The notes beneath the pieces were generated by a model. The model had not been told where the DNA came from. It made no database searches and saw nothing but the letters and a program-made list of their open reading frames with translations. A stretch of DNA of 64,000 nucleotides from Solwaraspora sp. WMMD791 (GTDB lineage: Bacteria; Actinomycetota; Actinomycetes; Mycobacteriales; Micromonosporaceae): NCBI RefSeq assembly GCF_029581195.1, contig NZ_CP120737.1, positions 3,263,001-3,327,000 of the forward strand. The letters are read 5' to 3'. Below, piece by piece: positions 39,907-54,609 of this stretch (the stretch's first letter is position 1; every line of letters starts with the position of its first letter). Made by a program: the position numbers and the translations under genes.

Positions 39907-39954
39907 CGATGACTTTGGCCGATGACAAGATGGTCAGGCCAAACGATGACAAGA
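39907..39954. repeat. Three CGATGAC repeats before LysR-type stub
   Basis: CGATGAC occurs at 39907, 39920 and 39944; the last two extend to CGATGACAAGA. They are spaced 13 and 24 bp. They lie 36-83 bp before the GTG at 39990, where an operator of the LanR-like stub or of another regulator could sit. Confidence 0.5.
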
Positions 39955-39989
39955 AGTCACGCGGTTCAGTTGGACATCGGGGAGTCGAT

Positions 39990-40259
39990 GTGAACGAGCG
40001 GGAGTTGCAGGCCTTCGTCGCGGTCGCCGAGCACGGTCGGATGGATCTGGCCGCCAAATCCCTTGGCTACTCACAGCCAGCGGTCAGCTACCAGATCAAG
40101 TGTCTGGAGATGGCGCTCGGCACCAAGTTGTTCGTCCGTACGTCGTCCGGTGCGACCCTCACCCGTACCGGGGCACTGGTGCTCCCCTCCGCGCAGGCGG
40201 TGCTGACCCTCATGCGTGGGATCAAGGCCACCACCGGGGATCTTGCCCTGGCCGCCTGA
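39990..40259 (+). CDS. Stand-alone LysR-type DNA-binding domain
   Basis: An 89-aa protein consisting only of the LysR winged helix: LQAFVAVAEHGRMDLAAKSL, then YSQPAVSYQIKCLEMALGTKLF and TLTRTGALVLP. GTG 39990 follows GGGGAG; an ATG at 39891 is possible but lacks such a site. The effector-binding domain of about 200 aa is absent, and no remnant follows, so it is probably a real short regulator, as known in some actinomycete RiPP and antibiotic clusters. It is the first gene before the lanthipeptide genes and may control them. The sequence 40260-40765 contains no supported gene. Confidence 0.7.
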   Translation: MNERELQAFVAVAEHGRMDLAAKSLGYSQPAVSYQIKCLEMALGTKLFVRTSSGATLTRTGALVLPSAQAVLTLMRGIKATTGDLALAA

Positions 40260-40765
40260 GCACCAGCACCAGCAGATACCGCACGGGCCTCCTGGCCCGG
40301 CGCGACCACCTCGGTCGTGGAGTGTCACCTCTCCCGAACGAGGCCCGGCCGCCCGGCTCAGGGGGCCCGCTGCGTGCGCCCGGCCGGCTGCGGTCGTCGC
40401 ATGAGAGTTTTCAAAACGGCCCCCTCCCGCCGCGCCGGGCCTGCCGAACCCGCCTCGACGACGGTCACGACCCCGCTGACCTCGGTCTCGTCACTGGTGA
40501 CCAGGGTCGCCGCCGCCGCCCGCCAGGGGCCGCCGCCCCCGGCACCCACCCTCACTTCGGACAAATAGCCGCCCGCCGGCAGAAACGATTTCGATGCACC
40601 GGCCGGGCGACACCTTGTCGCCGCAGGACGTTCGTGATTTTCTTCAGTCACGCGATCGACGGCAGGCAACACGACGCCGAAGTTCGGGGAATCCGTCACC
40701 ACCAATTCAGACACACCAACGGTCTGTATCTTCGTGCCCGCACGAGATCACGAAAGGAGGCGACA

Positions 40766-41866
40766 ATGACCACGAAGCAGGTGACACCGATCGATCTGGA
40801 CACCGTCCCGGAGATCGATAAGATCCTTGTTGACCTGGGCCTGGGCCCGTTCGACCGGGGCTCGGTGACGTCGCCGATCGGCCGCAACGATGCTTGGCTC
40901 GGCGTCACCGCGACCGGGAGAGACGTCTTTGTCAAGAAGCTCACCGGGCACGTCGACGACACAAAGAACCGCATGCGCCGGCTTCTCGGATTCGAGCAGT
41001 TCGCGGCTGGGGCACACCTGGAGAATGTCCGCTGGCCGCAGTTCATCGGCAGCGACGAACAACACCGGGTCGTCGTATTCGAACGGGTCGCCGACGCGAT
41101 CAACGGCGCGGCGCTCATGGTGGACGAGACCTTCACCACGGCACACGCCCGGCAGGTCGGACGGGCCGTCGGTCACCTGCACGCCAGCGCGGTACCGGAC
41201 GACATCGAGCTGGACGAGTCCACCCCGGCGTTCCCGCCGGTGGCGTTCCTCGAAGGGCTGCCCCTGTCGGTCTTCCTCAAGTCCAGCGCCGGTGAGATCG
41301 AGGCGTGGCGGCTGCTGCAGAACGATCCGGAGCTGATCACTGCGGTGACCCGGCTGCGCGACGCCGAGCAGCAGGCACCCCGGGTGCCGTCCCACTGCGA
41401 TCTGCGGGTCGACCAGTTCCTGATCAGCGACGAACACCTGTTCATCACCGACTGGGAGGAGTTCCGGCTGGCCGACCCGGCCCGCGACGTCGGCGCCTTC
41501 GCCGGCGAGTGGATCTACCGGTCGGTGCTGGACCTGGTGACGAACCGAGGCGACGAGGCCTTCGTGGACACCGAGTTCACCCACGATCTCGTGCTGCGGC
41601 GCGGCGTCGAGAAGATGCGCCGGCTGCTGCCGCTGGTCCACGAGTTCTGGCAGGCGTACCGGCAGGTCCGCCCGCAGGTCGACGCCGGACTCGCGGTCCG
41701 CGCGACCGCGTTCGCCGGCTGGCACCTGCTGGACCGCCTCGTCGCCGGGGCGCTCTCCTCCTCCCGCCTGTCCGCCATCCAGCGCGCCGCCGCCGGCGTC
41801 GGCCGGGCCGCGCTGGTCAACCCCGAACGCTTCGCCACCACCCTCGGCTTCGGAGGCGACAAATGA
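40766..41866 (+). CDS. lanK: Class V lanthipeptide kinase (APH-like, LanK)
   Basis: A 366-aa aminoglycoside-phosphotransferase-like protein. The catalytic loop is intact: SHCDLRVDQFLI with His210 and Asp212, and TDWEEF with Asp229. In class V lanthipeptide systems (lexapeptide LxmK and relatives) such a kinase phosphorylates Ser/Thr of the core, followed by elimination by a HopA1-like partner. ATG 40766 is preceded by a strong GAAAGGAGG. The next gene, the HopA1-like lyase, overlaps it by 4 bp, which fixes the functional pair. Confidence 0.85.
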   Translation: MTTKQVTPIDLDTVPEIDKILVDLGLGPFDRGSVTSPIGRNDAWLGVTATGRDVFVKKLTGHVDDTKNRMRRLLGFEQFAAGAHLENVRWPQFIGSDEQHRVVVFERVADAINGAALMVDETFTTAHARQVGRAVGHLHASAVPDDIELDESTPAFPPVAFLEGLPLSVFLKSSAGEIEAWRLLQNDPELITAVTRLRDAEQQAPRVPSHCDLRVDQFLISDEHLFITDWEEFRLADPARDVGAFAGEWIYRSVLDLVTNRGDEAFVDTEFTHDLVLRRGVEKMRRLLPLVHEFWQAYRQVRPQVDAGLAVRATAFAGWHLLDRLVAGALSSSRLSAIQRAAAGVGRAALVNPERFATTLGFGGDK

Positions 41867-42846
41867 CGCTGCACGCCGCACCACCGGCCCGACCGCAGTC
41901 ACCACCGCCGCACCACCGGCTCGCCGAGTCGGTACGCGAGGCGGTCCGGCAGATCCGGGTCTCGGCGGACCGCACCACCGCCGTCGTCGGCGGCCGCGAG
42001 ATCACCGCCGGGTTTCCCCGGGAACTGCGCCGGCTGCTCGCCGAGTCGATCTACAACGTGCTGCACTCCGGTCAGCCGGACGGGCAGGTGCCGACCCGGC
42101 TGCGCGACGACGCGCTCGAACGCCGGCTCATCGCCGCGGTGCCGCACCGGCAGATCGAGATCCGGGCCGTCGCCCGCTCGGCCGTCGGGCACGACGCCGC
42201 CGGCAACCCCCGGATTCTCGTCGAACGCGAAGGCCTGCGGATCTGGGTGCCGCCCACGGCGCTGACCTCGACCCACCACGCACCCGGTGAACCGGTGTCG
42301 CTGACGGTGCCGCCATGGCGCGCCGCGCTGTCGCCCGGGTTCTTCCTGGTCGACGGCTCCCGGCAGCGTGACCCCGGCCGGCGGGTACTCCGGGTCTACC
42401 TGCACCTGGTCGATGTCGACCACGCGGTGCAGGCCTGGGGGCAGGTGCTGAACCACCTGGAGGCGCACCAGGTGCCGTACCGGGCGAAGGTCCTCTCCGC
42501 CCGCGAGCTGTATCCGCGACGCGACGCGATCGTCGTCTACCTCACCGACGATCACGTCCACGTCGCCACCGACCTGGCCGGGCTCGCCCGGACGCTGCCC
42601 GGCACCGCACCGCAGACGTCGGTCTTCACCGACCGGCTCGCTCCCGGCGTCGGGACGGCCTGGGAGCCGGTCGACACCGTCGCCGGCCGGCAGGGGCTCA
42701 GCTTCGGCCAGCACCGCGCGACTGTCCTGGCCGCCGCGCTCGTCGAGGCCGCCGACGACCTGACCCGGGTGGATCCGCTGATCGTCCAGCGGTTCACCGA
42801 GGCCGGCATCGACCCGGCCAACCCGGCCCGCAACCTGGCTGGCTGA
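41863..42846 (+). CDS. lanY: HopA1-like phospho-Ser/Thr lyase (LanY)
   Basis: A 327-aa protein of the HopA1 effector family. The block VYLHLVDVDHAVQAWGQVLN, the segment DAIVVYLTDDHVH and the C-terminal GVGTAWEP...GLSFGQHR are characteristic. In class V lanthipeptide and thioviridamide-like clusters this family removes phosphate to form Dha/Dhb. ATG 41863 overlaps the kinase stop; GGAGG precedes it. A long hairpin and then two precursor genes follow. Confidence 0.85.
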   Translation: MTLHAAPPARPQSPPPHHRLAESVREAVRQIRVSADRTTAVVGGREITAGFPRELRRLLAESIYNVLHSGQPDGQVPTRLRDDALERRLIAAVPHRQIEIRAVARSAVGHDAAGNPRILVEREGLRIWVPPTALTSTHHAPGEPVSLTVPPWRAALSPGFFLVDGSRQRDPGRRVLRVYLHLVDVDHAVQAWGQVLNHLEAHQVPYRAKVLSARELYPRRDAIVVYLTDDHVHVATDLAGLARTLPGTAPQTSVFTDRLAPGVGTAWEPVDTVAGRQGLSFGQHRATVLAAALVEAADDLTRVDPLIVQRFTEAGIDPANPARNLAG

Positions 42847-42865
42847 CCCCGCACTCCGGCAGGAC

Positions 42866-42919
42866 CTGAGCTCGCTCGCTGGGAGGGTCCCCATCGGGCG
42901 CTCCCAGTCTGGAGCTCAG
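42866..42919 (+). terminator. Stem-loop before first precursor gene
   Basis: Nested arms CTGAGCTC/GAGCTCAG (42866-42873 with 42912-42919) and CTGGGAG/CTCCCAG (42879-42885 with 42901-42907). It separates the lanY stop from the first precursor and could attenuate read-through or protect the precursor mRNA. Confidence 0.6.
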
Positions 42920-42965
42920 TTCCGGCCCTGGGCGACCGTGCCCACCACCACGAAGGAGTCCACAG

Positions 42966-43154
42966 ATGCACACCGAGACCGCCACCACCAAGACCGACGA
43001 CATCGTCGAGCTCGTCGCCGGCTACGAGACCTACCTCGGCGACAGCGAGGACCTGGACGTCTCCGCCGTCGCGGACGCTCCGGCCACCACCTGGTACTGC
43101 GCCAGCGCGGCGGTCAGCTTCCTGACCGCGGTCACCTACGAGGCGACCTGCTGA
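42966..43154 (+). CDS. lanA1: Class V lanthipeptide precursor 1
   Basis: A 62-aa precursor peptide. The leader (about residues 1-38) has the block DIVELVAGYETYL and an acidic part ending VSAVADAP; the core begins around ATTWYC and ends in a C-terminal Cys. Compared with the second precursor the segments AGYETY, DVSAV and DAPATTW-x-CA are conserved. The core has two Cys, two Ser and several Thr. Thr at -5 from the terminal Cys (TYEATC) fits the AviMeCys ring of lexapeptide. A strong AAGGAG lies before ATG 42966. Confidence 0.85.
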   Translation: MHTETATTKTDDIVELVAGYETYLGDSEDLDVSAVADAPATTWYCASAAVSFLTAVTYEATC

Positions 43155-43172
43155 CCCGTACCCCCCGATCGA

Positions 43173-43193
43173 CGTCCGCCACCGTGGCGGACG
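43173..43193 (+). promoter_or_regulatory. Hairpin between precursor genes
   Basis: CGTCCGCCAC and GTGGCGGACG are perfect arms (43173-43182 with 43184-43193). It lies 18 bp after the first precursor stop and 31 bp before the next start. It may stabilise the upstream mRNA or act as a weak terminator. Confidence 0.55.
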
Positions 43194-43224
43194 CGGCAGA
43201 AACACCATCCACAAAGGAGGAACG

Positions 43225-43413
43225 ATGCAGGACAAGGCGAACGACATCGAGGAACTGCTCGCCGGCTACGAGACGTACAGCACCGCCGAGGACATCGACG
43301 TGTCGGCCGTCTCGGACGCCCCCGCCACCACCTGGGGCTGCGCCGCCGTCACCGCCGGCATCAGCTGGATGAGCGGCCAGGTCGTGTCGAAGACCATCGA
43401 CGACGGCTGCTGA
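43225..43413 (+). CDS. lanA2: Class V lanthipeptide precursor 2
   Basis: A 62-aa precursor with leader block DIEELLAGYETYS and VSAVSDAPATTWGCA at the leader/core junction. The core continues with Ala/Val/Ser/Thr-rich sequence and ends KTIDDGC: Thr again at -5 from the terminal Cys. Its core after TTW is 25 residues against 19 in precursor 1, so it makes a longer product. AAAGGAGG precedes ATG 43225. A perfect hairpin follows at 43431. Confidence 0.87.
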   Translation: MQDKANDIEELLAGYETYSTAEDIDVSAVSDAPATTWGCAAVTAGISWMSGQVVSKTIDDGC

Positions 43414-43430
43414 GCACCGCCCCGTCCCTT

Positions 43431-43465
43431 CAGCGGTGGGCCGGTGCCGTACCGGCCCACCGCTG
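43431..43465 (+). terminator. Strong hairpin after second precursor
   Basis: A perfect 15-bp stem (CAGCGGTGGGCCGGT with its complement at 43451-43465, loop GCCGT), 18 bp after the lanA2 stop and 28 bp before the methyltransferase. It probably terminates most transcripts so that precursors exceed the enzymes. Confidence 0.82.
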
Positions 43466-43492
43466 GGCCCGACACCCCGTGAGGACGCCCCC

Positions 43493-44509
43493 ATGACTGA
43501 GCTCGCGCCGTTCCAGCAACTGTTGACCATGACCGACCTTCTGGTCCCGGCCGCCGTGCGCGCGGCGGCGACGCTCGGGATCGCCGACCACATCGCGGGC
43601 GGCGCCACCACACCGGACGAGATCGCCCGGCGCGCCGGGTCCGTCCCCGACGTGACCGCCACGTTGCTGCGCTATCTCGCCGAGATCGGGCTGCTCGACC
43701 GCGACGACGACGACACCTACGCCCTGACGCCACTGGCCGAACCGCTGCGCACCGACCATCCGCAGAGTGTCCGCACGATGCTGCGCAACGACGGCATGAT
43801 CGGTGGCAGCACCCTGGCGCTGCTGCGCCTTGACCACACCGTACGGACCGGTCGGCCCGGCTACGCCGCCGAGTACGGCCGGGACTACTGGGAGGCCGTG
43901 AACCACGACCCGGCGTTCGACGCCGAATGGCAGGAGCAGGCCGCCGCGGCGGACCGGGCCGCCGGACAGGCGCTGGCCTGGGACGCCGGCACGGTGGTCA
44001 CCGGGTACGACTGGAGCACCGTCGACAGCTTCGTCGACGTCGGCGGACACCTGGGCAGCCTGACGCTGGCGCTGGTCCGCGCCCACCCGCACCTGCGTGG
44101 CACCCTGGTCGACCTGCGCAACGTCTCGACACAGGCCGGCCGCCGGTTCGCCCGCAGCGAGGTCGCCGACCGGCTGCGAGCGATCGAGGGCAGCTTCTTC
44201 GACCCGCTGCCCGCCGGTCACGACGTCTACCTGCTGTCGGCGATCCTGGCCGACTGGTCCGACGACGAGGCCGTACTGATCCTCAAGCGCTGCCGCGAGG
44301 CCGCCGGCGACCGGGGCGCGGTGCTGGTCGCCGACATCGCGATGCCGATCAGCGGGCCCGGCGCGGAGCTGCAGTTGCGCTCGATGATGCCCGCCCCGGC
44401 CCGCAGCGCCGCACAGATCGAGGAGCTGGCGGCGGCGGCCGGGCTACGGCTGTCCTGGCGCGGCCCCGGCACCGCCGTACGGACCCTGCTCGAGTTCACC
44501 ACCGCCTGA
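43493..44509 (+). CDS. SAM-dependent methyltransferase (LanM-type, LxmM-like)
   Basis: A 338-aa methyltransferase with the N-terminal dimerisation winged helix (ADHIAGGATTPDEIARRAG) and a C-terminal SAM domain (VDVGGHLGSLTLALV as motif I, GSFFDPLPAGHDVYLLSAILADW). Its fold is of the plant-type O-methyltransferase family, but in lexapeptide-like clusters a comparable enzyme N,N-dimethylates the N-terminus of the core. ATG 43493. It starts a run of overlapping genes to the end of the cluster. Confidence 0.82.
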   Translation: MTELAPFQQLLTMTDLLVPAAVRAAATLGIADHIAGGATTPDEIARRAGSVPDVTATLLRYLAEIGLLDRDDDDTYALTPLAEPLRTDHPQSVRTMLRNDGMIGGSTLALLRLDHTVRTGRPGYAAEYGRDYWEAVNHDPAFDAEWQEQAAAADRAAGQALAWDAGTVVTGYDWSTVDSFVDVGGHLGSLTLALVRAHPHLRGTLVDLRNVSTQAGRRFARSEVADRLRAIEGSFFDPLPAGHDVYLLSAILADWSDDEAVLILKRCREAAGDRGAVLVADIAMPISGPGAELQLRSMMPAPARSAAQIEELAAAAGLRLSWRGPGTAVRTLLEFTTA

Positions 44510-44539
44510 CGACGAGCCTGCCGAACGGAGGGATCCATC

Positions 44540-46384
44540 GTGAACACCTCAGGACACCCGACGAACCCGCCGCCGGAGCGTCAGCTGCGGCTGCTGCGGG
44601 ACATGGCCACCCGGCATCCGCTCGCCATCACGGTCATCGGTGCGCTGGCGCTGCTGGCGACCGCGGGCACGCTGGCGTTGCCGTGGGCGGTGGGTCAGCT
44701 GATCGCGAACCTCGGTCAGGGTGAGACCGCCCGCTGGACGACGCTGATGATCGCCTTCGGGCTCGGCTCGGCGCTGGCCAACACCCTGGCAACCTTCCTG
44801 CTCTCCCGGCTCGGCCAGCAGATGATCTGCCGGCTGCGGGTGCGGACCATGGGCCACGTACTGCGGCTGCCACTGGCCGACGTCCGCCGGGAGGGCAGCG
44901 GCAACCTCGTCTCCCGGATCACCGCAGACACCTCCCGGATCAAGAAACTGATCGACGTGGGCCCGATCCAGCTGCCCATCGCCGGCCTCACGGTCGTCGG
45001 CACGCTGGTGATCATGGGCCTGCTGGACTGGCGCCTGCTCGTGGTGACCGTCGGCGCCTTCCTCGTCGCGGCCGCCCTGATCGTGCTGGTCGTCAAACGG
45101 CTGCGACGCAGCTACGTGGCGGTGCAGGAGAGCACCGGCACGCTCGCCCAGCGCTTCGCGGCGGCGGTCGACGCGGTCAAGGTGATCAAGACGTACCGGG
45201 CAGAGCGGAGCGTCACCACCGACCTGGCCGAGAACGCCACGACGGTGGCCCGCCGGGAGATCGACGCGGCCCGGATGGAGGCGTTGATGACCCCGGTGGT
45301 GAACCTCGGCCAGCAGATCGCTCTCGTGGCGGTCGTCAGCACCGGTGGCGCGCGGTTGGTCGCAGGTGGACTGAGCCTGGCGGACTTCGTCTCCTTCCTG
45401 CTCTACCTGCTGCAGCTGACCGGTCCGTTCATGATGGTGGCGGCCGGGGTGACGGCATTGCGGATGGGCGCGGTGGCCCGGGACCGGTTCACCGGCCTGT
45501 TCGCGATGCCGACCGAGGAGTCGGCGGCGCCGACTGGTCTCCCCGCCACCGTCACCGACGGGTCGGCCGCACCCGCCGACAAGCTGGCCACGCCCGCCGA
45601 CAAGCTGGCCACGCCCATCGGCAGCCTGGCCGCGCCGCCCACGGCCGCCGTCCGGTTCGACCGGGTACGGTTCGGCTACGGCGCCGACCCGGTGCTGTGC
45701 GACGTCTCGTTCACGGTGCCACTGCGCGGCCTGACGGCGATGGTCGGGCTCTCCGGTGCCGGGAAGACCACCGCCGTGGAGCTGATCCAGCGCTTCGCCG
45801 ACGTCGACCGGGGCAGCATCGAGGTGCTGGGGCGCGACGTCCGGCACTGGTCGCTCGCCGAGCTGCGCGGCCGGATCGCCTACGTCGACCAGGCGGCCAG
45901 TTCGGTACAGGACACCATCCGGCGCAACCTGACCCTGGGCCGGGCCGACAACGCGTTCTCCGACGGCGAGCTGATGACCGTGCTGCAACAGGTGGGGCTG
46001 GCCGAGGAGGTCCGACGACTGCCGGACGGGCTGGACACCGTACTCGCCGGGGACGTCGACCTGTCCGGCGGTCAGCGGCAGCGGCTCGCGATCGCCCGGG
46101 CGATGCTGACCGATGCCCCGGTGGTGCTGCTCGACGAGCCGTCGTCGCATCTGGACAGCGTCAACGAAGGAAAGCTGCGCGACCTGGTCGACGAGTTGGC
46201 GGCGACCCGCGCCGTCCTGGTGGTCGCGCACCGAATCTCCACGATACGTCACGCCGACCACGTGGTGGTCCTGGAAGCCGGCGAGGTCGTCGGCCAGGGC
46301 GGGCACGACGAGCTGCTGCGTGACTGCGCCACCTACACCAACCTGGTCCACGGTCAGATGCTTGCCACGGGAGCCCACCGATGA
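44540..46384 (+). CDS. ABC exporter with fused membrane and ATPase domains
   Basis: A 614-aa half-transporter. Residues about 25-310 hold six membrane helices; about 375-605 the ATPase domain with Walker A GLSGAGKTT, signature LSGGQRQR and Walker B VVLLDEPSS. The joint (about 325-370) is an Ala/Pro/Thr-rich linker with a 21-bp direct repeat (45572-45592 and 45593-45613; ADKLATP). Presumably it exports the finished or leader-bearing peptide. GTG 44540 follows CGGAGGG. Confidence 0.88.
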   Translation: MNTSGHPTNPPPERQLRLLRDMATRHPLAITVIGALALLATAGTLALPWAVGQLIANLGQGETARWTTLMIAFGLGSALANTLATFLLSRLGQQMICRLRVRTMGHVLRLPLADVRREGSGNLVSRITADTSRIKKLIDVGPIQLPIAGLTVVGTLVIMGLLDWRLLVVTVGAFLVAAALIVLVVKRLRRSYVAVQESTGTLAQRFAAAVDAVKVIKTYRAERSVTTDLAENATTVARREIDAARMEALMTPVVNLGQQIALVAVVSTGGARLVAGGLSLADFVSFLLYLLQLTGPFMMVAAGVTALRMGAVARDRFTGLFAMPTEESAAPTGLPATVTDGSAAPADKLATPADKLATPIGSLAAPPTAAVRFDRVRFGYGADPVLCDVSFTVPLRGLTAMVGLSGAGKTTAVELIQRFADVDRGSIEVLGRDVRHWSLAELRGRIAYVDQAASSVQDTIRRNLTLGRADNAFSDGELMTVLQQVGLAEEVRRLPDGLDTVLAGDVDLSGGQRQRLAIARAMLTDAPVVLLDEPSSHLDSVNEGKLRDLVDELAATRAVLVVAHRISTIRHADHVVVLEAGEVVGQGGHDELLRDCATYTNLVHGQMLATGAHR

Positions 46385-47346
46385 CCGACTTCTCGATCAT
46401 GATGCCGTTCGCTCCGCAACGACCCGAGCAGATGCTGCCGTTCGCGGCACTCACCCAGTGGAGCCCGGCCGCCTGCCTCTGGCAGGGTCAGGGCAACGTG
46501 GGGGACACCCACATCAGTTTCGCCCACGCAGCCGCAGCCGGATTCCGGGTACCGACGGGCACCTCGGTCAACCTGATGCCCTTCCTGCACCCGTACGACG
46601 CGGCGCTGCGCGCGCAGACGTTGGCGGCGACCACCGGGAACCGCGTCGTCGCCGGGTTCGGCCCAGGCGGGGCGTCGCTGCAGCGGGGCATCCTGGGGGC
46701 ACCGTACCGCAGCCAGCTCGGCGCGGTCCGGGAGTACGTGACCGTGGTGCGTTCCCTGCTGGACACCGGCGAGGTACACCACGAGGGCGAGTACTTCACC
46801 TGCCGAATGGTGATGGCCCGCTACCCCCGACCACTCGTGGAGATCGGCCTGGGCGTGCTGCGGCCCCGGATGGCGGAGCTCGCCGGCGAGGTCGCCGACG
46901 TGGCGATCACCTGGCTGACATCCGCCGCGTACCTGCGGGAGACGCTGGTGCCCGCTCTGCGTCGGGGTGCGCAGCGGGCCGGTCGCCGTCCGCCCCGGCT
47001 GGTCGCGATCGTCCCGATGGCCCTGCGCGCCGACGGCCGCGACCCGGTCGAGTTGGCGCTGACCAGCAACTCGGGGCACATGCGACTGCCGCACTACGTG
47101 GACATGCTGCAGCGCTCCGGGATCGAAGTGGACATGGCCGCCGATCCCCGGGCCAGTGGCCGGGCGCTCGTCGACGGCGGGGCCTTCCTCTACGGCGACC
47201 GCGACGAACTCGCGGTCGCGGTCAAGGAGTTCGTCGCGGCCGGCGCCGACGAGGTGGCCTTCAACATGGCCGGCGTCTGCATGCTGTACGGGGCCCGCCG
47301 GACCCTCGGCGAGCTGGAGACGGTCCTGGAAAGTGTGGCGTCATGA
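46381..47346 (+). CDS. F420-dependent LLM-class reductase (LxmJ-like)
   Basis: A 321-aa luciferase-like (LLM) flavin/F420 enzyme: IMMPFAPQRPEQML start, GFGPGGASLQRG (F420-binding region) and the AGADEVAFNM end segment. In class V lanthipeptide clusters such an enzyme reduces Dha or Dhb to D-Ala or D-Abu. ATG 46381 overlaps the exporter stop (ATGA) and it overlaps the decarboxylase gene downstream. Confidence 0.83.
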   Translation: MTDFSIMMPFAPQRPEQMLPFAALTQWSPAACLWQGQGNVGDTHISFAHAAAAGFRVPTGTSVNLMPFLHPYDAALRAQTLAATTGNRVVAGFGPGGASLQRGILGAPYRSQLGAVREYVTVVRSLLDTGEVHHEGEYFTCRMVMARYPRPLVEIGLGVLRPRMAELAGEVADVAITWLTSAAYLRETLVPALRRGAQRAGRRPPRLVAIVPMALRADGRDPVELALTSNSGHMRLPHYVDMLQRSGIEVDMAADPRASGRALVDGGAFLYGDRDELAVAVKEFVAAGADEVAFNMAGVCMLYGARRTLGELETVLESVAS

Positions 47347-48014
47347 GCGTGCCGCCGCCCCTGGAGTTCCTGGACCCGCCGGAGCTGGCGATGCGGCGGC
47401 TGCTCTTCGTCGTCACCGGCTCGGCATCGGCCAGCACCGTGCCGACCTGGCTGAACTGGATCCGGGACACGTACCCGCGACTCGACCTGGCGGTGGTGGC
47501 GACCCGCAACGCGCTGCGGTTCGTCACCCGCGAGGCCCTTGGCCTGCGCACCAGCCACGAGGTCGTCGTCGACAGCTGGGACGACTGTGTCCGGGCCCGC
47601 CACGTCGAGCACGCCGAGTGGGCCGACGCGGTCCTGGTCTACCCGGCGACGCTGCACTTCGTCGCCCGCTTCGCCCTCGGCCTGGCCGACACCCCGACCC
47701 TGCTGGCGTTGCAGTGCACCCGCGCCGCGATCGGCCTGGCCCCGGCGCTGCCCCCGGGCGGTCTGGACAGCCCGGCGTTCCAGCGGCACTGGGCCACCCT
47801 GGCCGAGCGGGGCAACGTCGCGCTCGTTCCGCCGATGCCGGGCCGCAGTCTGACCACCGGCCGCGACGACGGCTGGGTGTGCCCGCCGTTGCCGGAGGCG
47901 TTGCGGCGGTTGGAGCAGCGCCGGCTGAGCCTGGAACCGGAACCGGAACTGGAACCGCCGGCGGCGGCGCTGGCCGGTGCCGGGTCCGCCGACGGCGGCG
48001 GGGTGACCGGATGA
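47343..48014 (+). CDS. lanD: HFCD flavoprotein cysteine decarboxylase (LanD)
   Basis: A 223-aa homo-oligomeric flavin-containing cysteine decarboxylase: LLFVVTGSASAS (flavin-binding start) and LVYPATLHFVARFALGLAD, the region corresponding to the PASANT segment of EpiD. It oxidatively decarboxylates a C-terminal Cys to give the enethiol that becomes Avi(Me)Cys. Both precursors end in Cys, as required. The C-terminus has a low-complexity EPEPELEPP segment. ATG 47343 overlaps the LLM gene. Confidence 0.85.
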   Translation: MSVPPPLEFLDPPELAMRRLLFVVTGSASASTVPTWLNWIRDTYPRLDLAVVATRNALRFVTREALGLRTSHEVVVDSWDDCVRARHVEHAEWADAVLVYPATLHFVARFALGLADTPTLLALQCTRAAIGLAPALPPGGLDSPAFQRHWATLAERGNVALVPPMPGRSLTTGRDDGWVCPPLPEALRRLEQRRLSLEPEPELEPPAAALAGAGSADGGGVTG

Positions 48015-48901
48015 GTACGGCCGTCGCCGCACCGGTCACCCGCGACTTCGGCACCGGACTGCTGCGTACGCAGGTGCGACCGCTGCCCGACGGTGGCCAC
48101 CGCTGGCACCGCCGGCCCGGCCCGCTCGCGCCCCGACCGTTCGTGCCGTCCGTCGTCGGCCTGGCCGAGCGGCTCGGCCGGTCGGACGGGTCCGCCCCGG
48201 TGCGGTGGGTCGCCGGCCGGGCGAACGGCCCGCAGCGCAGCTACGACGTACGCGGCAACCGCGCGGTGGCCGGCCGGCTGCTGCAGGACGGTCCGACCGA
48301 CGACCTCGTCGAGCTGCTGCACGGCTACGGCCGCTGTCTGCGTGCCCTGCACGCCGTCGACCCCGACGAGGTCGGGGTCGACGGCGACGGGCCGCCGCGC
48401 GGCCTGGCCCGCTTCACGACCTGGTTGGACGGTCGTGCACCACAGCCCCGGGCCGCGTACGCAGAGTCGATGCTGCGTCCCCGGCTCGGCCGTGCGGCGC
48501 TGGCCCGGCTGCGCGAGCACACCGGGCGGATCGCGGCGGCCGAGCAGGTGCTGTGCCACGGCGCACCGGGCCTCGGCGCGTTGGTGATCGCCGATCCGGG
48601 TCCGGGCGCGGACGCGTTGATCGGTGAGGACCTCTGCCGCGCACCCTGGTGGTTCGACCTCGGCTGGACCCTCGGTGAGCTGATCGAGCTGCAGTGGTAC
48701 CTCGGTGGGAACCGGTCGGCCTGGCAACGTTTGATCGATGCGCTGCTGCGCGGCTACGGGCGTGACCTCGACGACCGGTGGCGGGACACGGTGGCCCTGC
48801 GGGTGCTGCTGCACGTGCACGACTACACGGCCTACGTGGGTTGGGACGCGACGGTGTTCGACAAGTACACCGGGTTCGCCCGTTACCTGCTGTCGCGGTG
48901 A
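48011..48901 (+). CDS. Degenerate APH-like protein, LanX candidate
   Basis: A 296-aa protein with an APH-like outline whose catalytic residues are altered: the HGD triad is HGA (183-185, Asp to Ala) within CHGAPGLGALVI, and the DWE/DxD position reads GED (205-207). FDLGWTLGELIELQWYLGG matches the C-terminal APH lobe. It is therefore likely a pseudokinase or repurposed scaffold/cyclase. In lexapeptide-type clusters a third component (LanX) is needed with LanK and LanY; this gene is the best candidate by position and size. ATG 48011 overlaps the decarboxylase. Confidence 0.65.
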   Translation: MSTAVAAPVTRDFGTGLLRTQVRPLPDGGHRWHRRPGPLAPRPFVPSVVGLAERLGRSDGSAPVRWVAGRANGPQRSYDVRGNRAVAGRLLQDGPTDDLVELLHGYGRCLRALHAVDPDEVGVDGDGPPRGLARFTTWLDGRAPQPRAAYAESMLRPRLGRAALARLREHTGRIAAAEQVLCHGAPGLGALVIADPGPGADALIGEDLCRAPWWFDLGWTLGELIELQWYLGGNRSAWQRLIDALLRGYGRDLDDRWRDTVALRVLLHVHDYTAYVGWDATVFDKYTGFARYLLSR

Positions 48902-48909
48902 GGTGTGCG

Positions 48910-51573
48910 ATGAGCGTACCGACGGGGTACCAACCGCCGCCCGTACTGCTGCGCCGCACCCTGCCGAACGGGTTGCGGGTGGTGCTGGTGGCCCACTGGC
49001 CCACCCCGCGGGCCGCGGTGAGTGTCCACTACGGCGTCGGGTTCCGCCACGAAGCGCCCGGCCAGGAAGGGCTGGCGCACCTGGTCGAACACCTGATGTT
49101 CCGGGGCAGCGCGAATCTGCCGCCGGGCAGCTTCTACGACACCCTGCACCCGCTCGGTGGGACCGCGAACGGCACCACGCACGCCGACTACACCGACTAC
49201 TTCCAGGTGGTCCCGGCGCAGGCCGTGGAGCAGGCGTTGTTCCGCGAGGCAGACCGGATGCGCGCCCCGCTGTTCACCGCCGGGGAGTTGGCCAGTCAGC
49301 TCGACGAGGTGGGCCGGGAGATCGCCGGGACGCGTGACCGCCGCCCGTACGGCGGTCTGCCGTGGCCGGGCCTGCCGGCGGTGATGTTCCGCTCCTTCGC
49401 CAACGCTCACGACGGGTACGGCGACATCGACCAGCTGCGACGGCTGACCGTCGACGACTGTGCCGCGTTCGTCGACGCCACCTACGTACCGTCGCGGGCG
49501 GTGCTGACCATCGTCGCCCCCGGCGCGCCGGAGACGGTGTGGCCGCTGGTCGAGCGACACTTCGCCGACATCCCGGACCGGCACCGGCCGACGGTGCCAT
49601 CGGAGCATGAGCCACCGGCGGCGGCGCGGCGGGTCACCCGGGTGGTGCCGGCGGTCGACCGGGCGGCGGTGGCGCTCGGCTACCGGCTGCCGGATCCGGC
49701 GCGGGCGCTGCCGGATCATCTGGCGTACCTGGTGCTGGCCCGGATGGCCAGCGGCTGGCGCGGTCCAGACGGCGCGGCACGGGCCGAGGCCGGCTGTGGC
49801 TTCTTCGGGCCGTTGGACGCCCGCGCACCGGACGCGTTGGTGGTGACTTCGGTGCTGGCGCCCCGGCAGCGCCCGGACGATTTCGTGACGGAGCTGACTG
49901 CGCGGTGGCGCCAGCTGGCCGACCCGGACCGGCTGGCGACCGCCGCCCACCGGGCCGCGACGGCCGTGGCGGCGACCTACCGCCGTACGCATGCCCGGCT
50001 GGATCAGCGGTGTCGTGCGCTGGGCCGGTTCGAGCTGCTGTTCGGCCGGGCCGAACTGGTCGACGAGCTGCCTGGGCTGATCGCGGGCACCTCCGCCGAG
50101 CGGGTCGCCCGGGCCGCCCGGGAGGTGGCGGACGCACCGGTGGCCATGCTGGTGCTCGGTCCGCCCGACGTCGCCGCCCCGTCCGCTCCGGCGGCGGTCC
50201 CGGCGGCGTTCCCGGTGGCGGTCCCGGCGGCAGGGCCGGAGGCGGAGTCGACGCCGGTCCCGCCGGTCCCGCCGGTCCCGCCGGAAACAGGGTCGACGTC
50301 GACCGACGCCGCACCGGTGACAGCTGCCCGGCTGGCCGCACGGTCGGCCGGGCACCGGTCGATGCCGGCGCTGGCCCGACCGGTTGCGCCGAGGCTCGCC
50401 GGCGCGCGGCAGGTGCGGTTGCCGACCGGACTGCGGGTGGTCGCCGTACCGGACGACCGCGCCGATCTGGTCGAGCTACGGTTGCGGGTCCCATTGGGCC
50501 CGGCCGGGTGGGGTGACCCCGGTCGCGCCGGTGACCTGCTGCGGGTGCTGGCCGCCCGGACCAGTGCCGCCGGACGGGTCGCCGCCGTCGGCGGCGAGCT
50601 GCGGCTGGGGCAGGACGGGCAGTGGGCCGACGTGGACGCCTGGGCGCCGACGGGCGGCCTGCCGGAGCTGCTGCGGGTGCTGGCGGACGTGGTGACCCCC
50701 GGTGAGCTGCCCCGGTGGCGGCCGCTGCCGGGCGACGGGCCGCCGGCCTCGCCGGCGCGGCGGATGGACGACGCGTTGCGTCGGGTCTGGGCCGGGCGGC
50801 CGCCCGTGGTCGCCGCGCCCGACGACCTGACCGCCCTGCACCGGCAGGTCTTCGTGCCGGCCGGTGCGGTCCTGGTGCTGGTGGCGCCGTTGGCGGCCGA
50901 AGCGTTGGTGGCCGAGGCGACGGCGGCGCTGGCCGACTGGCGCGGCACCGACACGGGCGGGGCGCCCGGACCCGACACGGCCGCACCGCCGCAGCTGATC
51001 GTGGTGCCCGAGCCGGAGGTCGTCGCGGACGGTGGTCAGGTGCATCTCACGCTCTGCGGCCGGGAACCGTCGGGCGGTTCCGCAGAGCCGGCCCGTTACC
51101 TCGCGACGGCGCTGCTGGGTGGGCATCCGGCGGCCCGGTTGGCGCAGCGGTGCCGCCGGCTCGGGTACGCCGACGAGGTCATGCTGGCCCGGCGCGACGT
51201 ACTGGCCGGGCACCGGCGGGCGGCGGTACGGCTGTCGGTGCCCCGGCGGCGGCTGGCGCGCTCGGTCGCCGACGTGCGGGCCGAGGTGCGGGAGCTGATC
51301 GGCGTACCGCCCACGGTGGAGGAGTTGACGACGGTCCGCCGGTACTGCGCCGCGCAGCTGTTGACGGCCTTCGACTCGCCGGCGCAGCTGGCCGACGCGC
51401 TGCGGCACACCACGGCCGCCGGGCGCGGGCTCGACTGGGTGGTACGCCGGCCGCAGCTCCTGCGTACACCCGATCCACAGCAGGTCAGCGCGGCGGTGGG
51501 TGACCTTTTCGGCGACCTGGACCACGTCGTGGTCCTCGGAGCCGGATCCGTTGATCTCGTTGACTTTCCATGA
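48910..51573 (+). CDS. Tandem M16 (insulinase-type) peptidase, LanP candidate
   Basis: An 887-aa protein with two M16-like halves. The first has the inverted zinc motif HLVEHLMF (His57, Glu60, His61) and the downstream Glu region LDEVGREI; the second (from about residue 505, VRLPTGLRVVAVPDD) lacks HxxEH, as in non-catalytic beta-type halves. A Pro/Ala-rich linker (about 415-495) joins them. No signal peptide is obvious. It is the likely leader peptidase of the cluster. It starts 9 bp after the LanX candidate stop. Its own stop lies in a 15-bp inverted repeat at 51565. Confidence 0.8.
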   Translation: MSVPTGYQPPPVLLRRTLPNGLRVVLVAHWPTPRAAVSVHYGVGFRHEAPGQEGLAHLVEHLMFRGSANLPPGSFYDTLHPLGGTANGTTHADYTDYFQVVPAQAVEQALFREADRMRAPLFTAGELASQLDEVGREIAGTRDRRPYGGLPWPGLPAVMFRSFANAHDGYGDIDQLRRLTVDDCAAFVDATYVPSRAVLTIVAPGAPETVWPLVERHFADIPDRHRPTVPSEHEPPAAARRVTRVVPAVDRAAVALGYRLPDPARALPDHLAYLVLARMASGWRGPDGAARAEAGCGFFGPLDARAPDALVVTSVLAPRQRPDDFVTELTARWRQLADPDRLATAAHRAATAVAATYRRTHARLDQRCRALGRFELLFGRAELVDELPGLIAGTSAERVARAAREVADAPVAMLVLGPPDVAAPSAPAAVPAAFPVAVPAAGPEAESTPVPPVPPVPPETGSTSTDAAPVTAARLAARSAGHRSMPALARPVAPRLAGARQVRLPTGLRVVAVPDDRADLVELRLRVPLGPAGWGDPGRAGDLLRVLAARTSAAGRVAAVGGELRLGQDGQWADVDAWAPTGGLPELLRVLADVVTPGELPRWRPLPGDGPPASPARRMDDALRRVWAGRPPVVAAPDDLTALHRQVFVPAGAVLVLVAPLAAEALVAEATAALADWRGTDTGGAPGPDTAAPPQLIVVPEPEVVADGGQVHLTLCGREPSGGSAEPARYLATALLGGHPAARLAQRCRRLGYADEVMLARRDVLAGHRRAAVRLSVPRRRLARSVADVRAEVRELIGVPPTVEELTTVRRYCAAQLLTAFDSPAQLADALRHTTAAGRGLDWVVRRPQLLRTPDPQQVSAAVGDLFGDLDHVVVLGAGSVDLVDFP

Positions 51574-51602
51574 AGGAAACTCTAGACTTTCCTTCATGGA
51601 AA
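51565..51602. promoter_or_regulatory. 15-bp perfect dyad operator
   Basis: TTTCCATGAAGGAAA (51565-51579) is repeated as its exact complement at 51588-51602 with spacer CTCTAGAC. It includes the M16 stop and lies 15 bp before the start of the membrane protein/wHTH pair, whose product is likely to bind here. Confidence 0.72.
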
Positions 51603-51616: not shown

Positions 51617-52075
51617 ATGGCACAGCTGGACCCACGGCAGGCCCGCGAGGCACTTGCCGGAATCGACGCCGATCGCCAGGATCTCGCCCGCCGCGCCGTC
51701 GCACCCTGGTGGTTCCACTCCGGACTCGGCCTCAGCCTGGCGATCGCCTTCGCCTCGGTCTCCCTCGGCTGGGACTGGATTCCGTACGGCGTGATCGTCG
51801 GCCTGCTGATCGGACCGATCGTGGTCGCCCAGGCGGCCAACCACGCCACCGGCGTCTCTCTCGACCGACTGCACGCCACCCCGGGCGCCCGCCGGATCAG
51901 CATCAAGTTCGGCGCGTCGCTGCCGGTGCTGATCATCGCCGGACTCGGCCTCGAATGGGGCCTCGGGCTGACCGGCGCGATGGCCGCCACCGGCCTGCTC
52001 GTCCTGGTGCTCGCCATCGTCGCCGGCCGGGCGATCGACGCGGCGCTGCTGCGGGAACTGGGGCGGACAGCGTGA
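51617..52075 (+). CDS. Small integral membrane protein paired with wHTH regulator
   Basis: A 152-aa protein with four hydrophobic helices (about residues 34-52, 56-76, 98-115, 119-137). ATG 51617 after AAGGAGGAG is chosen over an upstream ATG at 51597 in the dyad. The PWWFHSGLGLSLAIAF start of helix 1 is typical of actinomycete membrane proteins encoded with a small wHTH regulator. Its stop overlaps the regulator start (GTGA). Role in immunity or signalling is inference. Confidence 0.7.
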   Translation: MAQLDPRQAREALAGIDADRQDLARRAVAPWWFHSGLGLSLAIAFASVSLGWDWIPYGVIVGLLIGPIVVAQAANHATGVSLDRLHATPGARRISIKFGASLPVLIIAGLGLEWGLGLTGAMAATGLLVLVLAIVAGRAIDAALLRELGRTA

Positions 52076-52389
52076 CCACCGGGCTCAACGAGATCATCCA
52101 TCCCCTGCACCGGCTGCAGATCTGCGCGATGCTGCACCCGGTCGAGTCACTGGCCTTCGCCGCGGTGCGCGATGCGGTGTCCATGAGCGACTCAGCGCTC
52201 AGCAAGCAGCTCAAGGTGCTGCAGGAGGCGGGGTACGTCACCGTCCGGAAAGAGCCATTGAATTCTCGAATCCACGCTTGGGTGTCGCTGACCCCGCTCG
52301 GTAGAACGGTGTTCACCGCCCACATGGCCGAGCTCCGTCGGGTCGCCGACGCCGCCGTCGACACCGACCACCCGCCCGCCCGGAGCTGA
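52072..52389 (+). CDS. Small winged-helix regulator
   Basis: A 105-aa wHTH protein of the ArsR/HTH_34 kind: LHRLQICAML, then DSALSKQLKVLQEAGYVTVRK as recognition helix and wing, and LTPLGRTVFTAHM. GTG 52072 overlaps the membrane protein. It most likely represses its own operon through the palindrome at 51565-51602. No metal-binding Cys cluster is seen. Confidence 0.82.
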   Translation: MTTGLNEIIHPLHRLQICAMLHPVESLAFAAVRDAVSMSDSALSKQLKVLQEAGYVTVRKEPLNSRIHAWVSLTPLGRTVFTAHMAELRRVADAAVDTDHPPARS

Positions 52390-52453: not shown

Positions 52454-53614
52454 GTGACACCCGCCGTCGCGCACATCGCGTTCATGTCGGTCCCGCTGCA
52501 CGGACACGTGAACCCGATGCTCGGAGTGGCCGCCGAGTTGACCCGGCGGGGACACCGGGTGAGCTTTGCGACCGGCGCCGGCTTCGAGTCGCTGATCGCC
52601 GAGACCGGGGCGACAGCCGTGCCGTACCGCTCGGTCCTGCCCGCCGCCGGCCCGGACGGGGCCTGGCTGGCCGCCGACGACGACGGCCGGGCCGCCGCCG
52701 CATTGTTCCGCCGGGAACGCGACCACGCGTTGCCGCAGATCGCCACCGCATACGCCGACGATCGACCGGACCTGGTCGTCTACGACACGGTCACCGCGCA
52801 CGCCCCGGTGCTCGCCGCCCGCTGGCAGGTTCCCGAGGTCCAGTTCTCGCCGACACATGTGTTCCCGCGCGGAAGCGAAGAGCTGATCGGCTCCCCGGTC
52901 CGGCTCGCCCCACCCGTCACGCCCTGCGTGGTGGCCATGCCCCGGTCGTTGCAGATCCAGGCGGAGCGGACCGACCCGGCCCACCGCTTCGTCGGTCCCG
53001 TGCGGTGGCGGCGCGACGCCGACGGGGACTGGAGCGCACCTCCCGGGCGACGGGTCGCGTTCGTGTCGCTCGGCACGACCTACAACCGTCGTACGGACGT
53101 TCTCGCCCGGTGCGCGCACGCCCTGCACGCCGACGGATGGCACGTGGTGGTCGCCACCGGCGGCGACGTCGAACCCGCCCGGCTCGGCGACCTGCCGGCC
53201 GGCGTCGAGGTGCACCGGTGGGTGCCCCAGGTGCGGGTGCTCGAACAGGCCTCGGTGTTCGTCACCGCCGGCGGCACCGGCAGCGTCCTGGAAGGGCTCA
53301 GCCACGGCGTTCCGCTGGTGGTCGTGCCGCAGGGGGTCGAGCACTTCGTCACCGCCGCCCGGGTCGAGGCCCTCGGCCTGGGCCGGACGGTCCGCCCGGA
53401 GGCGTTCTCCGCCGACGCCGTCCGCGACGCGGTCGACGCGGTCGTGACCAGCGACCGGGTCCGCCAGGCGCTCGCGGCGATGCGGGCCGAGATCGAAGCG
53501 GCCGGCGGGGCCCGGGCCGCGGCCGACATCGTCGAGGCACACCTACCGGCGGACCGGCGGACCCCCCACCCGGGCGAACATCTGGACCGACACCGGAAAG
53601 GACACGCGGCGTGA
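52454..53614 (+). CDS. GT1-type glycosyltransferase
   Basis: A 386-aa UDP/TDP-sugar glycosyltransferase of the macrolide-glycosyltransferase group: HGHVNPMLGVAAEL start, FVSLGTTYNRR, and the donor-binding end HRWVPQVRVLEQASVFVTAGGTGSVLEGLSHGVPL (in fragments: WVPQVRVL, TAGGTGSVLEGL). GTG 52454 follows GGAGGA. It could glycosylate the lanthipeptide (as in cacaoidin, which carries sugars on Tyr; precursor 1 has Tyr) or another metabolite. Its end overlaps the ABC ATPase gene. Confidence 0.82.
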   Translation: MTPAVAHIAFMSVPLHGHVNPMLGVAAELTRRGHRVSFATGAGFESLIAETGATAVPYRSVLPAAGPDGAWLAADDDGRAAAALFRRERDHALPQIATAYADDRPDLVVYDTVTAHAPVLAARWQVPEVQFSPTHVFPRGSEELIGSPVRLAPPVTPCVVAMPRSLQIQAERTDPAHRFVGPVRWRRDADGDWSAPPGRRVAFVSLGTTYNRRTDVLARCAHALHADGWHVVVATGGDVEPARLGDLPAGVEVHRWVPQVRVLEQASVFVTAGGTGSVLEGLSHGVPLVVVPQGVEHFVTAARVEALGLGRTVRPEAFSADAVRDAVDAVVTSDRVRQALAAMRAEIEAAGGARAAADIVEAHLPADRRTPHPGEHLDRHRKGHAA

Positions 53615-54609
53615 CCACGACAGCGACACCAACGACGGCGACACCGGCACCAGCGGCGCCCGCGACGCCCGCAGCGGCGGACCCCGGAGCGCACGGCCCG
53701 GTCACGGCGGTGGTGCAGGTACAGGGCCTGCGGATGAGCTACGGCCAGCGGCAGGTGCTGCACGGGATCGACTTCACCGTCGGCCCCGGCGAGATCGTGG
53801 CCCTGCTCGGGCCCAACGGCGCGGGCAAGAGCACCACCATCGAGGTACTGGAGGGCTTCCGGATCCGCTCTGGCGGCGAGGTCTCGGTGCTCGGCACCGA
53901 CCCGGCGCACGGCGACGAGCGGTGGCGCTCGCAGCTCGGCATCGTCCTGCAGTCCTGGCGTGACCATGGCAAGTGGCGGGTACGGGAACTGCTGGCCCAC
54001 TTCGCGTCGTTCTACCGGCCGTACGCTCGCGCCGCCGCCGACGCCGCCTCTGGTGGCGACGGTGGTGGCGACGGCGGTGGGCCGTGGGACGTCGACGACC
54101 TGCTCGCCACCGTCGGACTCGACGCGCACGCCCGTCAACCGGTCGCCACCCTCTCCGGCGGGCAACGCCGCCGGCTGGACATCGCGGTCGGCATCGTCGG
54201 CCGCCCGAGGGTGCTGTTCCTGGACGAACCCACCGCCGGCTTCGATCCGCAGGCCCGGCACGAGTTCCACGAGCTGGTCCGCGGGCTCGCCGACACCCAG
54301 ATGTCGATCCTGCTGACCACCCACGACCTGCAGGAAGCCGAGAAGCTTGCCGACCGGATCTTGATCCTGGCCGGCGGCCGGATCGTCGCCAGCGGCACCC
54401 TCGACGAGTTGGCCGGCAAGCTGGACGGTGCCGCCGAGATCACCTGGACCGTCGGCGGCAGGGCGCACAGCGCCCGCTCGGCCGACGTCTCCGGGTTCGT
54501 CCGCACGCTGCTGTGCTCCGACGCGGACGTGCAGGACCTGCGGGTGCACCGGCCCAGCCTGGAGGACATCTACCTGAAACTGGTACACGATGCGGAGGGC
54601 ATCCGATGA
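53611..54609 (+). CDS. ABC transporter ATPase
   Basis: A 332-aa ATPase with an unusual Ala/Thr/Pro-rich N-terminal tail (about residues 1-30), Walker A GPNGAGKSTT, signature LSGGQRRRLD and Walker B VLFLDEPTAGFDP. A Gly/Asp-rich insertion (GGDGGGDGGG) lies near residue 150. It pairs with the membrane gene downstream, overlapping it by 4 bp. It is of the multidrug/self-resistance exporter kind. Confidence 0.9.
   Translation: MTTTATPTTATPAPAAPATPAAADPGAHGPVTAVVQVQGLRMSYGQRQVLHGIDFTVGPGEIVALLGPNGAGKSTTIEVLEGFRIRSGGEVSVLGTDPAHGDERWRSQLGIVLQSWRDHGKWRVRELLAHFASFYRPYARAAADAASGGDGGGDGGGPWDVDDLLATVGLDAHARQPVATLSGGQRRRLDIAVGIVGRPRVLFLDEPTAGFDPQARHEFHELVRGLADTQMSILLTTHDLQEAEKLADRILILAGGRIVASGTLDELAGKLDGAAEITWTVGGRAHSARSADVSGFVRTLLCSDADVQDLRVHRPSLEDIYLKLVHDAEGIR

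What the first reader, a model, noticed from the sequence alone, without database searches (positions are those of the whole stretch)
40766..51573. Class V lanthipeptide cluster with two precursors
The set kinase (intact HxD...D), HopA1-like lyase, two 62-aa precursors, methyltransferase, exporter, F420-type reductase, HFCD decarboxylase, degenerate APH-like protein and M16 peptidase is the class V toolkit. Most genes overlap by 4 bp. The precursors share a TTWxC start of the core and differ in length, so two different products are predicted. I do not recognise either core as a described compound.
Basis: partly seen in the sequence, partly recalled or inferred. Interest (0 to 1): 0.88.

Follow-up and report, generated by a model that had tools for sequence, protein, structure and literature searches.

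The report
Class V lanthipeptide cluster, two precursors
This actinomycete carries what looks like a complete gene set for making two ring-containing peptides of an already described antibiotic family, with a sugar-attaching enzyme encoded beside it whose role is not yet known.

Summary
Window 40766-51573 encodes a class Va lanthipeptide cluster: LanK (NCBIfam LxmK equivalog, 491 bits, cut-off 315), LanY, two 62-aa precursors, a PF00891 methyltransferase, exporter, F420-type reductase, cysteine decarboxylase, LanX and M16 peptidase. LanX is best read as the AviMeCys cyclase described for RosX; its model is nearest to TvaE, then LxmK.

Both precursor types occur in 18 of 21 methyltransferase-bearing clusters examined. 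The window's 22-aa A1 core, without the middle Cys, belongs to a supported group of 9 clusters in Micromonosporaceae and Streptomyces.

The system probably extends to about 55460. An OleI-like glycosyltransferase (52454-53614) is in 8 of 354 family genomes, each time beside such a cluster, and in 3 of 46 LanK-bearing Streptomyces, the three with the nearest LanK. Its role (decoration or self-protection) is open. Core fragments were not found in the open PMC texts. Products are predicted, not shown.

The parts
39990..40259 (+). 89-aa LysR-type helix-turn-helix protein without a sensor domain; possible cluster regulator
   Evidence: PF00126 HTH_1, E 3.7e-20 on the longer frame 39891-40256; 90% identical copies about 4-5 kb upstream of LanK in L037-L039; not found in the fetched flanks of L033-L036
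40766..41866 (+). LanK, Ser/Thr kinase of the dehydratase
   Evidence: NF038156 lant_syn_V_LxmK 491.3 bits, cut-off 315; PDB 9dk1-9dk3 chain A, E 4.6e-86; kinase residues invariant in 8 of 8
41863..42846 (+). LanY, HopA1-type phosphoSer/phosphoThr lyase
   Evidence: PF17914 149.3 bits, cut-off 22.7; PDB 9dk1_B (LxmY) E 3.3e-50
42966..43154 (+). LanA1 precursor, 62 aa; predicted 22-aa core starting TTWYC, ending TYEATC
   Evidence: translation; LxmA_leader 16.9 bits, below the cut-off of 25; same core type in 8 other clusters
43225..43413 (+). LanA2 precursor, 62 aa; predicted 28-aa core starting TTWGC, ending TIDDGC
   Evidence: translation; NF038146 LxmA_leader 34.4 bits, cut-off 25; same core type in 8 other clusters
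43493..44509 (+). methyltransferase of the CaoSC/SprMe kind, predicted N-terminal N,N-dimethylation
   Evidence: PF00891 102.3 bits and dimerisation domain PF08100 50 bits; CaoSC passages of PMC11447909
44540..46384 (+). ABC exporter (membrane and ATPase domains fused)
   Evidence: PF00664 and PF00005
46381..47346 (+). LanJ, F420H2-type reductase, predicted Dha to D-Ala
   Evidence: PF00296 92.4 bits; best NCBIfam TIGR03564/MSMEG_4879 117 bits, below its cut-off of 234.25
47343..48014 (+). LanD, flavin cysteine decarboxylase
   Evidence: PF02441 54.8 bits; best NCBIfam NF033753 CypD family 95.4 bits, below its cut-off of 215
48011..48901 (+). LanX, kinase-fold protein without the HxD aspartate; predicted AviMeCys cyclase
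   Evidence: no Pfam or NCBIfam family at E 0.05; model pLDDT 88.6, best fold matches TvaE 8jsu and then LxmK 9dk2; H268 and D271 invariant in 12 of 12
48910..51573 (+). LanP, two-domain M16 peptidase, predicted leader removal
   Evidence: PF00675 and PF05193; HLVEH read in the translation (that this is the zinc motif is recalled)
51565..51602 (.). perfect 15-bp inverted repeat with 8-bp spacer, probable operator of the following regulator operon
   Evidence: TTTCCA-N3-TGGAAA sites precede the same gene in L033-L036 and L105; L113 and L114 not assessed properly (start of the gene not reached)
51617..52075 (+). small membrane-like protein linked to the cluster
   Evidence: 5 of 354 family genomes at E 1e-25, all five with this cluster; 36-50% identical copies near further Streptomyces clusters
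52072..52389 (+). ArsR/winged-helix regulator
   Evidence: NF033788 34.4 bits, below its cut-off of 55; neighbouring copies in relatives
52454..53614 (+). macrolide-family (OleI/OleD-like) glycosyltransferase linked to the cluster
   Evidence: TIGR01426 331.8 bits, cut-off 260; PDB 2iya E 3.8e-85; 8 of 354 genomes
53710..54609 (+). ABC transporter ATPase (DrrA-like), possible self-protection
   Evidence: TIGR01188 190.9 bits, below its cut-off of 312; syntenic in L034-L036, L105, L113, L114
54606..55460 (+). ABC-2 type permease (DrrB-like), partner of the ATPase
   Evidence: PF12698 on the longer frame from 53973; TIGR01247 37.9 bits, below cut-off; syntenic in L034, L105, L114

Best explanation
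A class Va lanthipeptide cluster of the sis (sistertide/kebanetide/pristinin-like) type that matures two peptides with one enzyme set. LanK phosphorylates and LanY eliminates Ser/Thr of both precursors. [quoted passage not shown] LanD decarboxylates the C-terminal Cys and LanX closes the AviMeCys ring on Thr17 (A1) or Thr23 (A2), five residues before the last Cys. LanJ reduces Dha to D-Ala. LanP removes the leader after DAPA, the methyltransferase dimethylates the new N-terminus (sure for neither peptide: sistertide A1 is methylated, A2 is not), and the ABC exporter releases the product. Shown here: the genes, their families, the intact kinase residues, the LanX fold, conservation of both precursors. 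Inferred by homology: every reaction, and the linked glycosyltransferase and DrrAB-like transporter as decoration or self-protection.
For: LxmK equivalog, HopA1 lyase, LxmA leader; LanX model nearest to TvaE, then LxmK; Thr five residues before the last Cys in both cores, the T-X4-C rule given for the sis family in PMC11162475; A1-type and A2-type precursors together in 18 of 21 related clusters; A1 cores on average 87% identical between Micromonosporaceae and Streptomyces clusters while the window's enzymes are 50-69% identical to the Streptomyces ones; the mass rules used reproduce the calculated sistertide A1 and A2 ions of the paper to 0.0001 m/z.
Against: No transcript or product evidence. 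A1 scores below the LxmA_leader cut-off. LanD and LanJ score below their nearest NCBIfam cut-offs. The catalytic glutamate of RosX could not be mapped because the RosX sequence was not at hand. Ordinary APH kinases also match the LanX model (from E 1.4e-7), so the fold alone does not prove a cyclase. Three of 21 related clusters (L051, L052, L055) show an A1-type precursor only.
Confidence: 0.93

Rival explanations
1. The two products act together as a two-component class V lantibiotic, each weak alone. (An addition to the main reading rather than a contradiction of it.)
For: Both precursor types found in 18 of 21 related clusters, and one of each found in 9 of 9 of the window's group. PMC11162475 (passage) reports that sistertide A1 alone was not significantly active while the crude extract was, and suggests combined action.
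Against: In the same paper kebanetides A1 and A2 were each active alone. L051, L052 and L055 show A1-type only. Both peptides use one enzyme set, unlike the two-component class II systems that paper compares with.
Confidence: 0.4
2. The linked macrolide-family glycosyltransferase glycosylates the peptide, either as a final decoration (as in cacaoidin) or as reversible self-protection (as recalled for OleI and oleandomycin). (Also an addition to the main reading.)
For: 8 of 354 family genomes have it at E 1e-90; all 8 are among the 12 with LxmK over the cut-off and have the gene beside the cluster. 3 of 46 LanK-bearing Streptomyces have it at E 1e-50, the three with the nearest LanK, and so has Streptomyces sp. 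CB00455, on the same contig. Best PDB match is an oleandomycin glycosyltransferase (2iya); NCBIfam OleI family also matches, below its cut-off.
Against: The gene starts 880 bp beyond LanP, behind its own regulator and probable operator. The sistertide-like cluster L111 and four other sis-type Streptomyces clusters (L106-L109) lack it, also genome-wide at E 1e-50. The published sistertide masses leave no room for a sugar. The 346 LanK-negative Streptomyces genomes were not searched for it. The genomes compared are related, so counts are not independent.
Confidence: 0.5
3. It is a thioamitide or another kinase/HopA1 RiPP, not a lanthipeptide.
For: LanX is nearest by fold to TvaE of a thioamitide pathway.
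Against: No YcaO or TfuA family among the 10 cluster proteins at E 0.05; LanK passes the class V equivalog cut-off; each core carries an N-terminal Thr-Thr-Xxx-Xxx-Cys motif and two Cys.
Confidence: 0.03

Closest known systems
sis family class V lanthipeptides: sistertides A1/A2, kebanetides A1/A2 (PMC11162475)
   Same: One enzyme set for two precursor types, A1 (SisA1 ends TYEWTC, window TYEATC) and A2 (SisA2 ends KTVKDGC, window KTIDDGC); methylation; an oxidoreductase (SisR) with D-Ala; AviMeCys from T-X4-C
   Different: Window A1 core is 22 aa with 2 Cys against 34 aa with 3 Cys in SisA1, so the middle thioether ring is absent; the window cluster carries a linked glycosyltransferase, absent from the sistertide-like cluster L111. 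Whether the published sis and keb clusters themselves carry one was not seen.
Pristinin A3 (spr cluster, PMC7794033, passages)
   Same: PF00891 methyltransferase, HopA1/phosphotransferase pair, unlike precursors in one cluster, NMe2-MeLan first residue, M16 peptidase
   Different: Different cores; spr has three precursors and a LuxR regulator
Cacaoidin (cao cluster, PMC8068269 passages and section 7; PMC9486802 part 1)
   Same: LanK, LanY, LanX, LanD, F420H2-type reductase, M16 peptidase, PF00891 N-methyltransferase (CaoSC); glycosyltransferases in the cluster
   Different: Single precursor gene caoA; core SSAPCTIYASVSASISATASWGC; three glycosyltransferases and an O-glycosylated Tyr
Rosins (ros cluster, PMC12291118, parts 1-4 of 6)
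   Same: LanK-LanY dehydratase, LanD, RosX-type cyclase, T-X4-C AviMeCys ring
   Different: No N-methyltransferase; three precursors; two separate M16 peptidases

Membership tests
Class V lanthipeptide | stand-alone LanK kinase of the LxmK type with intact catalytic residues | tested here: met
   491.3 bits against cut-off 315; residues by alignment
Class V lanthipeptide | stand-alone HopA1-type LanY lyase | tested here: met
   PF17914 149.3 bits against 22.7; LxmY in PDB
Class V lanthipeptide | precursor with LxmA-type leader and Ser/Thr/Cys core | tested here: met
   A2 34.4 bits over cut-off 25; A1 16.9, below it; leaders alike by eye
Class V lanthipeptide | no LanB, LanM, LanKC or LanC gene in the cluster (class Va) | tested here: met
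   no such family among the 10 cluster proteins in Pfam at E 0.05; other window genes only partly scanned
Class Va, AviMeCys subgroup | LanD decarboxylase plus LanX kinase-fold protein | tested here: met
   PF02441; LanX fold
RosX-type AviMeCys cyclase | Glu220, His269, Asp272 of RosX conserved | tested here: inconclusive
   an invariant HxxD pair (H268, D271) has the spacing of His269/Asp272; Glu candidates E223 and E226 are invariant in 12 of 12, but RosX itself was not aligned
Class V lanthipeptide | product contains Lan/MeLan | not testable with these tools
   needs mass spectrometry or NMR
sis family | A1-type and A2-type precursors served by one enzyme set, with C-terminal T-X4-C | tested here: met
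sis family | A1 with three Cys, A2 with two (as in SisA1/SisA2) | tested here: not met
   window A1 core has two Cys, as have 9 of 9 clusters of its group; hence a variant lineage of the sis type. That the published family of 42 clusters requires three Cys is not stated in what I read
Two-component lantibiotic | synergy of the two peptides | not testable with these tools
   conservation of the pair is only suggestive
Thioamitide | YcaO/TfuA pair | tested here: not met
   no such family among the 10 cluster proteins

The most novel reading that the evidence does not exclude
A lineage of two-peptide class V lantibiotics, spanning Micromonosporaceae and Streptomyces, in which A1 has lost its middle ring and a dedicated OleI-like glycosyltransferase reversibly glycosylates the peptide inside the producer: self-protection by sugar on a ribosomal lantibiotic, a strategy known (from recall) for macrolides.
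Probability: 0.25. Interest if true: 0.65.

Novelty: new member of a known kind. Interest (0 to 1): 0.38.

Why it matters
It gives two predicted peptides with exact masses to look for, and a compact variant (22 and 28 residues) of a family with reported activity against Gram-positive bacteria. The conserved pair, with A1 cores more conserved than the enzymes that make them, makes the open question of whether sis-type peptides work together directly testable. The linked glycosyltransferase, if it acts on the peptide, would be a tailoring or immunity step not described for this subfamily in the papers I saw.

Tried and rejected
Rejected: thioamitide reading (no YcaO/TfuA among the 10 cluster proteins). 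Rejected: LanX as an active second kinase; the HxD aspartate is replaced in 12 of 12 LanX aligned (HGA in 10, HGN in 2). That X matches no Pfam family says little, since K matched none either. Rejected: chance precursors, since both recur in other genera. Considered and not settled: the glycosyltransferase as a neighbour by chance; its restriction to 8 of 354 genomes, all with the cluster, speaks against it, but those genomes are related. Led nowhere: promoter/terminator scan of 40200-44600 (1 promoter-like site inside LanK, 2 terminator-like sites on the minus strand, none between 42846 and 43493); PDB sequence search with LanX (best E 0.11); mapping of the RosX glutamate; operator check in L113 and L114 (gene start not reached). 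Limits: the searches scored at most 5 candidates in most genomes; the glycosyltransferase was looked for in 46 of the 392 Streptomyces genomes, and in six genomes, two of them among those 46; the genome-contig scan returned 12 loci and none from the named sis, keb, spr or cao producers, so those clusters were compared through the papers only.
Full report
What is there. The window lies in a 6.93 Mb single-contig genome. Ten genes from 40766 to 51573 run in one direction and give, in order, LanK, LanY, A1, A2, a methyltransferase, an ABC exporter, a luciferase-like F420-type reductase, a flavoprotein decarboxylase, a kinase-fold protein and a two-domain M16 peptidase.

Class. LanK is an LxmK equivalog (491.3 bits, cut-off 315), and LxmK/LxmY of the lexapeptide dehydratase complex are the only strong PDB sequence match of K (two others at E 5.5e-4 and 0.0097) and the only match of Y at E 0.01. 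The five LxmK residues named in PMC12291118 (I read parts 1 to 4 of 6) are present in the window's K. Y matches the HopA1 family. A2 passes the LxmA leader model; A1 scores below its cut-off.

LanX. Its predicted structure (mean pLDDT 88.6) is nearest to TvaE in complex with its leader peptide (8jsu, E 1.1e-9), then to LxmK (9dk2, E 1.4e-8); ordinary APH kinases follow from E 1.4e-7. PMC12291118 shows that RosX is the AviMeCys cyclase and needs Glu220, His269 and Asp272. In 12 of 12 LanX aligned (one of them a partial row) the window's H268 and D271, with the same spacing, are invariant, as are E223 and E226. I read it as the cyclase; the glutamate is not mapped.

Known relatives. PMC11162475 (section 8 read whole, other passages) describes the sis family: one enzyme set, a three-Cys A1 and a two-Cys A2, 42 clusters. 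The cores printed there end TYEWTC and KTVKDGC; the window's end TYEATC and KTIDDGC. The window's A1 core, TTWYCASAAVSFLTAVTYEATC, lacks the middle segment and middle Cys of SisA1. CaoSC, the PF00891 methyltransferase of cacaoidin, prefers a dehydro residue at position 2 and dimethylated haloduracin beta, which has Trp after Dhb2 (PMC11447909, passages), so the TTW start fits N-terminal dimethylation. Against this, sistertide A2 is not methylated.

Distribution. LxmK passes its cut-off in 12 of 354 genomes of the family and in none of 14 control genomes; within the window's genus it does so in 1 of the 7 genomes shown (G000, G304-G309). I examined 21 distinct clusters with a PF00891 methyltransferase match: the window, L033-L039, L047, L049, L051, L052, L055, L105-L109, L111, L113, L114. 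Both precursor types are present in 18; in L051, L052 and L055 I found only the A1 type. L040-L044, L050, L110 and L112 showed no methyltransferase match in the printed tables and were left out of that count. The first precursor filter missed A1 in L035 and L036; reading the frames found it.

Lineage. In a 26-row LanK tree the nine clusters with the 22-aa A1 form one group (support 100/99), with Micromonosporaceae and Streptomyces members; the three glycosyltransferase-bearing Actinoplanes-type clusters fall elsewhere. Between the two halves of the group A1 cores are on average 87% identical (77-95) and A2 cores 77% (57-96); the last part of the leaders, as captured by the pattern, 69% and 72%. 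The window's enzymes are 50-69% identical to those of the four Streptomyces clusters. The A1 core is thus more conserved than its enzymes.

Cluster limits. Downstream lie a small membrane-like gene, an ArsR-like regulator, an OleI-like macrolide-family glycosyltransferase (TIGR01426 331.8 bits, cut-off 260; PDB 2iya) and a DrrAB-like transporter. The glycosyltransferase is found at E 1e-90 in 8 of 354 family genomes; all 8 are among the 12 with LxmK over the cut-off, and in all 8 the gene sits beside the cluster, downstream in five and upstream in three. In Streptomyces, 46 of 392 genomes have a LanK at E 1e-60; 3 of those 46 have the glycosyltransferase at E 1e-50, the three with the nearest LanK (67-69% identity, the next being 60%). 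Streptomyces sp. CB00455 has it too, about 970 bp beyond LanP on the same 45,208-base contig. The genomes of L106-L109 and of the sistertide-like L111 do not have it at E 1e-50; those of L049 and L051 show only matches of 39-45% identity and that of L050 none. I take the glycosyltransferase as part of the system in this lineage, with function open. The membrane-like gene is in 5 of 354 genomes at E 1e-25, all with the cluster.

Prediction. Rules taken from the sis paper reproduce its calculated ions for sistertide A1 (1085.2084 against 1085.2083) and A2 (816.7487). Applied here they give A1 2236.0485 Da (six dehydrations, T21 spared by analogy, two reductions, two methyls) and A2 2677.2603 Da without or 2705.2916 Da with two methyls. 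These are inferences.

Literature. Searches for class V lanthipeptide, HopA1 with lanthipeptide, two-component class V, lanthidin, core fragments with sistertide and kebanetide, class V with glycosyltransferase and lanthipeptide with macrolide glycosyltransferase were seen as listings; papers opened are named above and in Closest known systems. Only looked for core letters, and found none. The library holds open-licence papers only, and supplements were not read, so the sis paper's list of clusters could include relatives or this one.

Verdict. A real, apparently complete and correctly recognised class V cluster; ordinary in kind, with two products not found in print and one unexplained, strongly linked glycosyltransferase.

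Noticed in passing
39990-40259: An 89-aa protein that is only the DNA-binding half of a LysR regulator. Copies 90% identical lie about 4-5 kb from LanK in L037-L039, and in 5 of 11 genomes checked such a gene lies within about 6 kb of a LanC-like gene, so it may be a recurring companion of lanthipeptide clusters of several classes.
   Followed up: partly
51565-51602: Perfect 15-bp inverted repeat with 8-bp spacer overlapping the LanP stop codon, upstream of the ArsR-like operon; TTTCCA-N3-TGGAAA sites precede the same gene in L033-L036 and L105. Probable operator.
   Followed up: partly
52454-53614: OleI-like glycosyltransferase; the 8 of 354 family genomes that have it at E 1e-90 all carry this cluster type.
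   Followed up: yes
L041:10318-11385: A distant class V cluster in the same family (G350, LxmK over the cut-off) with a run of at least five short precursor-like frames ending in Cys.
   Followed up: no
14001-18000: A local drop in G+C (0.588 and 0.615, against 0.64-0.76 in the other 2-kb steps), perhaps a foreign segment.
   Followed up: no
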